Positions 10,563 to 11,505 of a stretch of 11,505 nucleotides of DNA are shown in pieces; position 1 is the first letter of the stretch, and every line of letters begins with the position of its first letter. Source of the DNA: an uncultured Clostridia bacterium (lineage in GTDB: Bacteria > Bacillota > Clostridia > Oscillospirales > Butyricicoccaceae); the NCBI GenBank assembly GCA_945486175.1, contig CALYTA010000009.1:1-11505 (forward strand), written 5' to 3'. A program made the position numbers and the translations under genes. The notes below the pieces were generated by a model. The model ran no database searches and was not told the DNA's origin. It worked only from the letters and a program-made list of their open reading frames with translations.

Positions 10563-10588
10563 AGAGGAAAGAAAGAGAGGTGCTGGGC

Positions 10589-11218
10589 ATGACAATTTCC
10601 GACAGAATCCGCGAGCTGCGCCGCGCGAGGGGCATTTCACAGGAAGAGCTTGCCGCAGAAATCGGCGTATCCCGCCAGGCGGTGTCCAAATGGGAGAGCG
10701 GACAGAGTGTGCCTGACCTAGACCGGGTCATCGCACTCAGCGATTATTTTGAAGTCACAACCGACTATTTGTTAAAGGGCATTGCACCAACTGTGCCGCA
10801 GTCCGGCAAACAGGCACCCAACGCATCGGTGTTTGCCATCGCCGGGACGGCATTGAATGTCATCGGGCTTGCCACCTCCTGCGGCGTATGGTACGAGGAA
10901 CAAAATGCAATGGCAATTATTATCGGTCTCATTTTTATGGCGATGGGCTGCATGATCTTCGGCATCGGCATGGTCTGCCCCTCTGCGGACACCCGGCTGA
11001 AGGCAAAGGACCTGTTCTGGAAGGTCAACATCTGGATTCTTGTCTTCCTGCCGCTGGCGGTCGTGTACAACATTCTGACAGGCGGGCTTCCGGCACCCTA
11101 TCCGCTGCGGCGCGGGCCGCTGTTTTCCTTCCAGATTGCTTTCTGGATCATTTATCTCGCCATCTGCCTGCTGGCACAGCGGTATCTCCGCCGAAGCAAC
11201 AGCAAAAAAGACGACTAA
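10589..11218 (+). CDS. XRE-family regulator with four membrane helices
   Basis: A 209-residue one-component regulator. Residues 1-64 are a Cro/CI-type helix-turn-helix: [20 protein letters not shown] (6-25) and recognition helix [18 protein letters not shown] (28-45), then [15 protein letters not shown] (50-64). After a short linker come four hydrophobic segments (about 80-101, 107-130, 145-165, 178-197) and a basic/acidic tail RRSNSKKDD. The DNA-binding part should face the cytoplasm, anchored to the membrane. Start at the ATG at 10589, with GAGAGG 8 bp upstream; an in-frame GTG at 10580 overlaps that site and is rejected. It is divergent from the surface-polymer operon and shares a 176-bp regulatory region with it, suggesting it senses a membrane or envelope state and controls that operon and itself (inference). 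Confidence 0.9.
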
Positions 11219-11252
11219 CAAAAAAGGAGACATCCGCGGATGTCTCCTTTTT
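11219..11252 (+). terminator. Intrinsic terminator of the XRE regulator gene
   Basis: GGAGACATC and GATGTCTCC pair around a CGCG loop, flanked by A on the left and a T run (11248-11252) on the right, directly after the stop codon. It is symmetric, so it could work on both strands. The tandem repeat array begins immediately after it. Confidence 0.93.
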
Positions 11253-11253
11253 C

Positions 11254-11505
11254 TTTTATCCATTGTATCCGGCCCGTACATCCGCGCGGCGTTGGGGCAA
11301 CTGCCGGACCGTCCGTCCGACATGTTCGCTACTCGCGGGAGCGAGCCAGAAAGGTTTTCTTTTGCCTATTGTTTTATCCACTGTATCTGTCTCGCACAAC
11401 CCACGCGGCGTTGGGGCAACTGCCGGACCGTCCGTCCGGCATGTTCGCTGCTCGCGGGAGCGAGCCAGAAAGGTTTTCTTTTGCCTATTGTTTTATCCAC
11501 TGTAT
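11254..11505. repeat. Tandem array of a 118-119 bp unit, running off the window
   Basis: Units start at TTTTATCCA at 11254, 11372 and 11491, so the periods are 118 and 119 bp, and a third copy is cut by the window end. From GTTGGGG to CCTATTG (11291-11371 against 11410-11490) the copies differ at only 2 of 81 positions. The first about 37 bp of each unit are more diverged and include a 1-bp length difference. Each unit contains two possible hairpins: GCCGGAC/GTCCGGC, and GCTCGC-GGGA-GCGAGC with a GNRA-type loop. No gene with a ribosome site is seen in these 252 bp. Role unknown; a non-coding structured array, a species-specific intergenic repeat or part of a mobile element are possible. Confidence 0.9.

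What the first reader, a model, noticed from the sequence alone, without database searches (positions are those of the whole stretch)
11254..11505. Tandem 119-bp structured repeat array of unknown function
Two nearly identical units and the start of a third follow head to tail straight after a terminator. The 81-bp core has only two differences, so the array is recently amplified, kept uniform by conversion, or under selection. Unit length and the lack of spacers differ from CRISPR, and no transposase is near. I do not recognise the unit.
Basis: seen in the sequence. Interest (0 to 1): 0.7.

Follow-up and report, generated by a model that had tools for sequence, protein, structure and literature searches.

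The report
Tandem copies of a triplex-forming repeat
The array is two and a bit copies of a non-coding DNA repeat scattered between genes in these Clostridia; its complete copies end in a segment that looks built to fold into a three-stranded, sometimes knotted structure, and related segments turn up across many bacterial phyla.

Summary
The array is real: TRF gives 119 bp x 2.1 copies at 11254-11505. The window is the whole contig C9 and ends inside the array. The unit is a dispersed repeat: at least 87 copies in 9 of 12 genomes of the genus, partly in arrays (18 found). A complete copy is tripartite: a long stem-loop, a GGGA-loop hairpin (both covarying) and an A/T-rich tail S1-linker-S2-loop-R. 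S1 mirrors S2, as an intrastrand pyrimidine triplex requires: among 66 informative hairpins not selected by sequence, 19 have a mirror copy only, 2 a direct copy only, 1 both, 44 neither. The tail occurs across phyla; in Proteobacteria it often gains a covarying pseudoknot X:X'. Only the last unit of an array keeps an intact S2:R hairpin (16 of 18 last, 0 of 21 internal, strict test); the window's units are of the tail-less kind. In the genus R lies within 15 nt of an opposing stop codon in 28 of 37 such cases. Closest known: intrastrand triplex (PIT/BoxC) repeats and REPs. Folding in cells, strand and function are not shown.

The parts
11226..11257 (+). terminator-like stem-loop GGAGACATCCGCGGATGTCTCC plus T-tract behind the HTH gene; the array begins in its T-tract
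   Evidence: read; HTH_3 domain
11254..11372 (+). repeat unit 1 (119 bp)
   Evidence: model R1 match 11289-11385, 60.5 bits
11297..11329 (+). unit 1 stem-loop 1
   Evidence: pairs read; covariation in relatives
11332..11345 (+). unit 1 hairpin 2, CTCGC-GGGA-GCGAG
   Evidence: covariation in relatives
11355..11364 (+). unit 1 pyrimidine tract S1, TTTTCTTTTG; no S2:R hairpin follows
11373..11491 (+). repeat unit 2 (119 bp)
   Evidence: model R1 match 11408-11504, 70.1 bits
11416..11448 (+). unit 2 stem-loop 1
11450..11465 (+). unit 2 hairpin 2, GCTCGC-GGGA-GCGAGC
11474..11483 (+). unit 2 pyrimidine tract S1; no S2:R hairpin within the window
11492..11505 (+). start of unit 3, cut by the contig end

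Best explanation
The array is part of a tandem run of a dispersed, non-coding, tripartite repeat. SHOWN BY COMPARISON: stem-loop 1 and the GGGA hairpin are kept by paired changes; the complete tail has the sequence logic of an intrastrand pyrimidine triplex (S1 parallel to R in the groove of the S2:R hairpin), which in many Proteobacterial copies and in a minority of the own order's copies is closed into an H-type pseudoknot by X:X'; in the genus the R end of most complete copies sits a few nt from a coding sequence, mostly behind the stop codon of the opposing gene. INFERRED: arrays grow by slippage or template switching when replication stalls at the tail, so that new units lose S2:R and only the last keeps it; the element spreads and is lost as DNA; in place it works like a REP, a folded block at a gene's 3' end acting on mRNA decay, on the terminating ribosome or on polymerase passage.
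For: Family: at least 87 copies in 9 of 12 genus genomes (150 candidates scored per genome). 5' module: covariation 0.304 vs shuffled 0.123 in 25 sequences; 0.445 vs 0.138 in 89 distinct (alignment fitted to the structure). Mirror test: of 66 informative hairpins of unselected core, 19 mirror only, 2 direct only, 1 both, 44 neither; all 111 unselected: 39 mirror vs shuffled mean 12.5, maximum 19 in 200; direct 10 vs 7.8. Pseudoknot (regrouped): X:X' of 3 bp or more in 60 of 131 genome contigs elements (shuffled mean 8.3, max 18 of 1000), 14 of 76 own order (2.1, max 7), 4 of 20 viral contigs (0.6, max 3); A3, 45 sequences chosen by spacing and not by X: 0.792 vs 0.220, slid at most 0.154. Arrays: intact S2:R in 16 of 18 last, 0 of 21 internal, 45 of 51 single units. 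Position: 28 of 37 opposed cases within 15 nt of the stop codon. Turnover. PIT elements are reported to block DNA polymerase in vitro (PMC4666352 passage); REPs within 15 nt of a stop codon to act on translation (PMC12306157 passages).
Against: No folding or expression data. 44 of 66 informative hairpins have no S1 copy of either kind. G.T does not exceed A.C in the 5' module (37 vs 48 of 1704 cells) nor in X:X' (13 vs 12 cells in 95 elements), which speaks against an RNA-only structure on that strand. X:X' is absent or under 3 bp in 62 of 76 own-order tails. In the Proteobacteria sampled no R end was within 41 nt of an opposing stop codon (25 cases). The 0-of-21 rule uses a strict test (8 perfect pairs starting at C); both internal units of L407 still keep about 8 pairs without the closing pair. 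Two last units fail: L016 (degenerate R arm near a contig end) and the window's own (cut). Holder et al. found no triplex signal in cells for the E. coli motif (PMC4666352, Discussion part 1).
Confidence: 0.55

Rival explanations
1. A purely selfish, MITE- or REP-like DNA repeat: structure serves its own copying, and its place behind stop codons is only where insertion does least harm.
For: Presence and absence at orthologous sites; amplification within single genomes: 67 tail motifs in one Paraburkholderia genome (the listed ones all alike but one) and 99 in one Clostridia genome, reversed-pattern controls 0; no wobble preference in the 5' module.
Against: Sites shared by five and four species of the genus with the structure kept; the R end, not the other end, is the one next to the coding sequence. 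No clear tie to the Y1 transposase family: G001 (99% complete, 19 copies) has none and G010 has Y1 but no copy; however 3 of the 4 genomes with Y1 do carry copies, and G000 is only 65% complete.
Confidence: 0.3
2. An RNA element read from the U-rich strand: a pseudoknot with a U.A-U major-groove triple helix, of the type known from telomerase RNA and the MALAT1 3' end, that stabilises or ends transcripts.
For: Topology X-S1-S2-X'-R; base-stem wobbles favour G.T over A.C on that strand, 30 vs 5 in 131 genome contigs elements, 12 U.G cells at one pair in A3; upstream gene co-oriented 49 vs 17 in genome-contig loci; GGGA is a GNRA-type loop (recalled).
Against: In the own genus the upstream gene is co-oriented in 10 and opposed in 10, and the U-rich strand is antisense to the neighbouring gene's 3' end in most cases; own-order wobbles 3 G.T vs 5 A.C; X:X' 13 G.T vs 12 A.C; no RNA evidence; wobble cells share ancestry.
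Confidence: 0.2
3. Mirror symmetry is a by-product of simple pyrimidine tracts and of descent from a few ancestors, with no triplex ever formed.
For: The core TTTTCTTTT is its own mirror, so most copies cannot discriminate; shuffled contexts already give 12.5 mirror hits of 111; three of the informative loci (L253, L260, L317) come from one genome; most motifs of short stem in A/T-rich genomes are expected by chance (PMC4666352).
Against: 19:2 for mirror over direct among informative unselected hairpins, from several lineages; S1 length follows R length, e.g. 14-nt tracts in G157/G229 and 6 T with 6 A in G029, with at least one exception, L231.
Confidence: 0.15
4. Assembly artefact.
For: The contig ends in the repeat; the assembly is 65% complete in 310 contigs.
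Against: Arrays of the same kind in other genomes, one inside a 52-kb contig.
Confidence: 0.03

Closest known systems
Intrastrand triplex repeats of bacteria: PIT elements, BoxC, TMECO (Holder et al. 2015, PMC4666352: abstract, sections 15 and 16, first part of the Discussion, and passages read; the earlier Hoyne/Maher papers known only through it)
   Same: Three neighbouring tracts that can fold into an intrastrand triplex; many copies; no known function. On the U-rich strand the order Hoogsteen-pyrimidine-purine is their class IV, on the other strand class II like TMECO.
   Different: A/T-rich core TTTCTTTTG/CTTTTCTTT/AAAGAAAAG rather than the G/C-rich TMECO; in Proteobacteria a covarying pseudoknot in loops of about 8 nt, outside their search rule (loops 1-6 nt); in this genus fused to a two-hairpin 5' module. 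Their main text has 0 occurrences of 'pseudoknot', 'covari' and 'compensatory'. Whether their database lists this A/T-rich motif was not checked.
REP / BIME elements (PMC12306157: abstract and passages read)
   Same: Short dispersed palindromes between genes, single or in arrays; a part of them within 15 nt of a stop codon, where they are reported to act on translation.
   Different: Different fold with a third strand; no clear tie to the Y1 transposase family; a directional tail at the gene boundary.
Triple-helix pseudoknots and 3'-end triple helices (telomerase RNA, MALAT1; topology recalled, MALAT1 abstracts seen only in the listing)
   Same: U-rich strand, U-rich strand, A-rich strand in this order; loop 1 of an H-type pseudoknot in the deep groove of stem 2.
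   Different: No evidence yet of an RNA here; no sequence relation tested.
CRISPR arrays
   Same: Tandem units.
   Different: Units are head to tail without unique spacers.

Membership tests
Intrastrand triplex (PIT) motif | Three adjacent tracts, the Hoogsteen tract mirroring the hairpin arm | tested here: met
   Met for complete copies. The units in the window themselves lack the S2:R hairpin.
Intrastrand triplex (PIT) motif | Loops of 1-6 nt (search rule of Holder et al.) | tested here: inconclusive
   Own-genus examples have loops of about 3-6 nt; the 45 Proteobacterial-type copies of A3 were chosen with 8 nt between the fixed arms.
Intrastrand triplex (PIT) motif | Triplex formed by the isolated strand in vitro | not testable with these tools
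   Needs CD, NMR or probing.
REP element | Short palindrome in many intergenic copies | tested here: met
   (8 of 64 complete tails were called inside an ORF).
REP element | Association with a Y1 (RAYT) transposase (feature recalled) | tested here: not met
   PF01797 in 4 of 12 genus genomes; absent from G001 (19 copies, 99% complete) and from G000 (18 copies, 65% complete); G010 has Y1 and no copy; G004, G008, G009 have both.
H-type pseudoknot | Two crossing helices, both supported by covariation | tested here: met
   A3: X:X' and the base of stem 2 covary; the core of stem 2 is fixed by the search pattern. Own order: only 14 of 76 tails reach 3 bp of X:X'.
MITE | Terminal inverted repeats and target-site duplication | not tested
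   Filled and empty sites were only looked at by eye.
Rfam RNA family | Score above a family's gathering threshold | tested here: not met
   None in the window. In nine own-genome loci 8 weak matches at E<=5, all below their gathering scores. In eight loci of other bacteria 2 matches, one of them (Bp1_684) overlapping the last 7 nt of an element.
CRISPR | Repeats separated by unique spacers | tested here: not met

The most novel reading that the evidence does not exclude
Across several bacterial phyla there is one recurring nucleic-acid device, X-UUUCUUUUG-linker-CUUUUCUUU-X'-AAAGAAAAG: an H-type pseudoknot whose first loop makes a base-specific triple helix, kept by three-strand covariation. 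It would be the bacterial counterpart of telomerase- or MALAT1-type triple helices, and in this Clostridia genus it is the terminal lock, set at a gene's end, of a modular repeat that grows by one unit each time replication stalls on it.
Probability: 0.35. Interest if true: 0.85.

Novelty: new variant of a known kind. Interest (0 to 1): 0.7.

Why it matters
Intrastrand triplex repeats are known in bacteria, but whether the third strand matters in a living cell is open. Here the third strand follows the hairpin through sequence and length changes; hairpin-templated repair would not produce that, because S1 is a mirror and not an inverted copy (my inference). A pseudoknot outside the loop range of the earlier search closes the fold in many Proteobacterial copies. 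That makes the question testable by comparison and by simple bench assays, and the polarity of the arrays (only the last unit intact) may be a natural record of where replication slips.

Tried and rejected
Without result: Rfam; BLAST of the array in phages and plasmids; a Paraburkholderia element in phages (in plasmids it does match, 21 records); motif strings in the paper library (0 papers each; the library holds only open papers). The asymmetric variant CTTCTCTTT in 391 genomes of the class matched only 3, one of them the own genome. MAFFT put S2 and R of two subtypes in different columns of A1, so tails were analysed by script and R1 pairs only the 5' module. Dropped: a switch in which S1 replaces S2 (needs a direct repeat); mobilisation by Y1; CRISPR.

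Limits: gene contexts come from my own ORF callers; L035 and L037 are listed as co-oriented although the TPP-enzyme gene there is opposed. Two callers gave 49 vs 21 and 49 vs 17. In one search a few viral and own-genome elements were put in the wrong group; one search gives the mended counts, used here. For genome contigs elements found by the pattern, S1, S2 and R cores were fixed, so only neighbouring unselected elements, X and the base stem are evidence. Hairpin loci without S1 exist: 13 of the 30 loci lack the TTTCTTTT mark, and 4 of 40 (besides L242, which has the other core). Copies are related, so shuffles are not probabilities.

Full report
1. What is in the window. TRF finds one array at 11254-11505, period 119, 2.1 copies. 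It starts in the T-tract of a terminator-like hairpin behind a gene with an HTH_3 domain (10580-11218) and is cut by the contig end: the window is the whole of contig C9. The two 81-bp cores differ at two positions. One unit folded alone is no more stable than its shuffles.

2. The unit is a dispersed repeat of the genus. The array matches 13 places in its own genome, itself included. A covariance model of 25 copies finds 87 copies in 9 of 12 genomes of the genus; only 150 candidates per genome were scored, so this is a lower bound; G007, G010 and G011 gave none. In the window it finds two units. No Rfam family at gathering score, no match in phage or plasmid records. The Y1 transposase family does not clearly follow the repeat: 4 of 12 genomes have it, three of them with copies and one without, and the two richest in copies have none, one of these only 65% complete.

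3. Anatomy of a complete copy. (a) Stem-loop 1 and (b) hairpin 2 with a GGGA loop: on 25 sequences 13 of 20 pairs have changes on both sides, covariation 0.304 against 0.123 shuffled and at most 0.130 slid; on 89 distinct sequences 298 double-changed cells, 0.445 against 0.138 (this alignment was fitted to the structure). G.T cells (37) do not exceed A.C cells (48) of 1704, so nothing points to RNA rather than DNA for this part. (c) The tail: S1 (TTTTCTTTTG), a short linker, S2 (CTTTTCTTTT), a loop, R (AAAAGAAAAG).

4. Why a triplex. A pyrimidine third strand lies parallel to the purine strand, so S1 must mirror S2. The common core is its own mirror and cannot tell. I therefore collected all hairpins with an all-pyrimidine 5' arm of 9 or more in the loci fetched by then, without looking at S1 (775), and set apart the 111 whose core was not the one used for searching. 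Of the 66 that can discriminate, 19 have an upstream mirror copy only, 2 a direct copy only, 1 both, 44 neither. Over all 111, 39 have a mirror copy against a shuffled mean of 12.5 and a maximum of 19 in 200 shuffles; direct copies (10) are near chance (7.8). Examples come from the own genus, Comamonadaceae, Paraburkholderia, Stenotrophomonas (one mirror, one of the two direct) and another Clostridia genome. S1 lengthens with R in other families of the order, with at least one exception, L231. Of 162 hairpin orientations in viral contigs, 8 have S1.

5. The tail is widespread. The hairpin-only pattern matches 131 places in 30 of 295 genomes of the order (reversed control: 9 places in 9 genomes); not all of these have S1. 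Ten genomes holding such loci have 1 to 99 copies, reversed controls 0. A Paraburkholderia element also matches 21 plasmid-collection records, 323 places, with no listed gene under the best place wherever the record is annotated.

6. A pseudoknot. In many of these elements the nt before S1 (X) are complementary to the start of the loop behind S2 (X'): 60 of 131 genome contigs elements have 3 bp or more (shuffled mean 8.3, maximum 18 of 1000), 14 of 76 of the own order (2.1, 7), 4 of 20 of viral contigs (0.6, 3) (which mends the grouping). In 45 ungapped elements, chosen by spacing and not by X, X:X' has covariation 0.792 against 0.220 shuffled and at most 0.154 slid, the base of stem 2 0.717 against 0.231. 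X:X' crosses S2:R, so the fold would be an H-type pseudoknot with S1 as loop 1. In the loci I could group by name, X:X' of 3 bp or more occurs in 33 of 41 Proteobacterial, 3 of 8 Bacteroidota and 5 of 33 Firmicutes elements.

7. Which strand. In genome contigs elements base-stem wobbles favour G.T on the U-rich strand (30 vs 5 A.C), and the upstream gene is co-oriented 49 to 17. Against this: X:X' has 13 G.T and 12 A.C; own-order base stems 3 and 5; in the genus the upstream gene is co-oriented in 10 and opposed in 10. Of 64 complete genus tails 37 face an opposing gene, 28 of them with R within 15 nt of its stop codon; 18 were called co-oriented, at least two of these wrongly; 8 were called inside an ORF and 1 had no neighbour. 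So in the genus the A-rich strand would mostly be in the neighbour's mRNA. I do not decide between RNA and DNA.

8. Turnover and arrays. At a phosphoglucomutase gene 5 of 10 readable genomes (of 12) carry the element and 5 do not; at a TPP-enzyme gene 4 of 10 do, one more has a remnant of the 5' module and 5 have none. In several of the element-bearing sequences a terminator-like hairpin lies beyond the element (by eye). Eighteen arrays hold 39 of 90 model hits; by a strict test S2:R is intact in 0 of 21 internal, 16 of 18 last and 45 of 51 single units; the two failing last units are the window's own, cut by the contig end, and L016, with a degenerate R arm near a contig end. In the 13 arrays I printed, R of the internal units mostly breaks off early, and in several (L022, L404, L421, L426, L029, L428) the stretch between units resembles the left flank of the array; in others I see no such likeness, and both internal units of L407 keep about 8 pairs. 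I infer slippage or template switching at the tail.

9. Literature. Holder et al. 2015 (PMC4666352; parts read as stated under Closest known systems) describe intrastrand triplex motifs as abundant in bacteria, cite earlier work with polymerase blocking in vitro but no promoter or terminator activity, and report no triplex signal in vivo. Motif strings and a term search for bacterial triplex pseudoknot repeats (listing only) gave no description of this motif; the library lacks most subscription journals.

10. Verdict. The thing is a modular repeat whose tail, missing from the units in the window, is a triplex motif, in many relatives of pseudoknot type: a new variant of the PIT kind. Its structure as potential is well supported; formation in cells, strand and function remain inference.

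Noticed in passing
L267:4272-4787 and genome G681: In Paraburkholderia haematera many of the listed tail elements stand as divergent pairs about 475-650 b apart; in L267 the segment between has its own inverted repeats, as if the pair were one larger element.
   Followed up: partly
genome G690 (locus L260): A 2.6 Mb Clostridia genome holds 99 matches of the full tail pattern, several in close pairs.
   Followed up: no
L045, L052, L301: The R arm alone is locally repeated, as from slippage.
   Followed up: no
L408, L413, L405: Tail-only tandem runs with a period of about 50-58 nt, the last copy 3-11 nt from the opposing stop codon.
   Followed up: no
L267:4781-4877: Rfam sRNA family Bp1_684 matches right behind, and overlaps by 7 nt, a tail element.
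   Followed up: no
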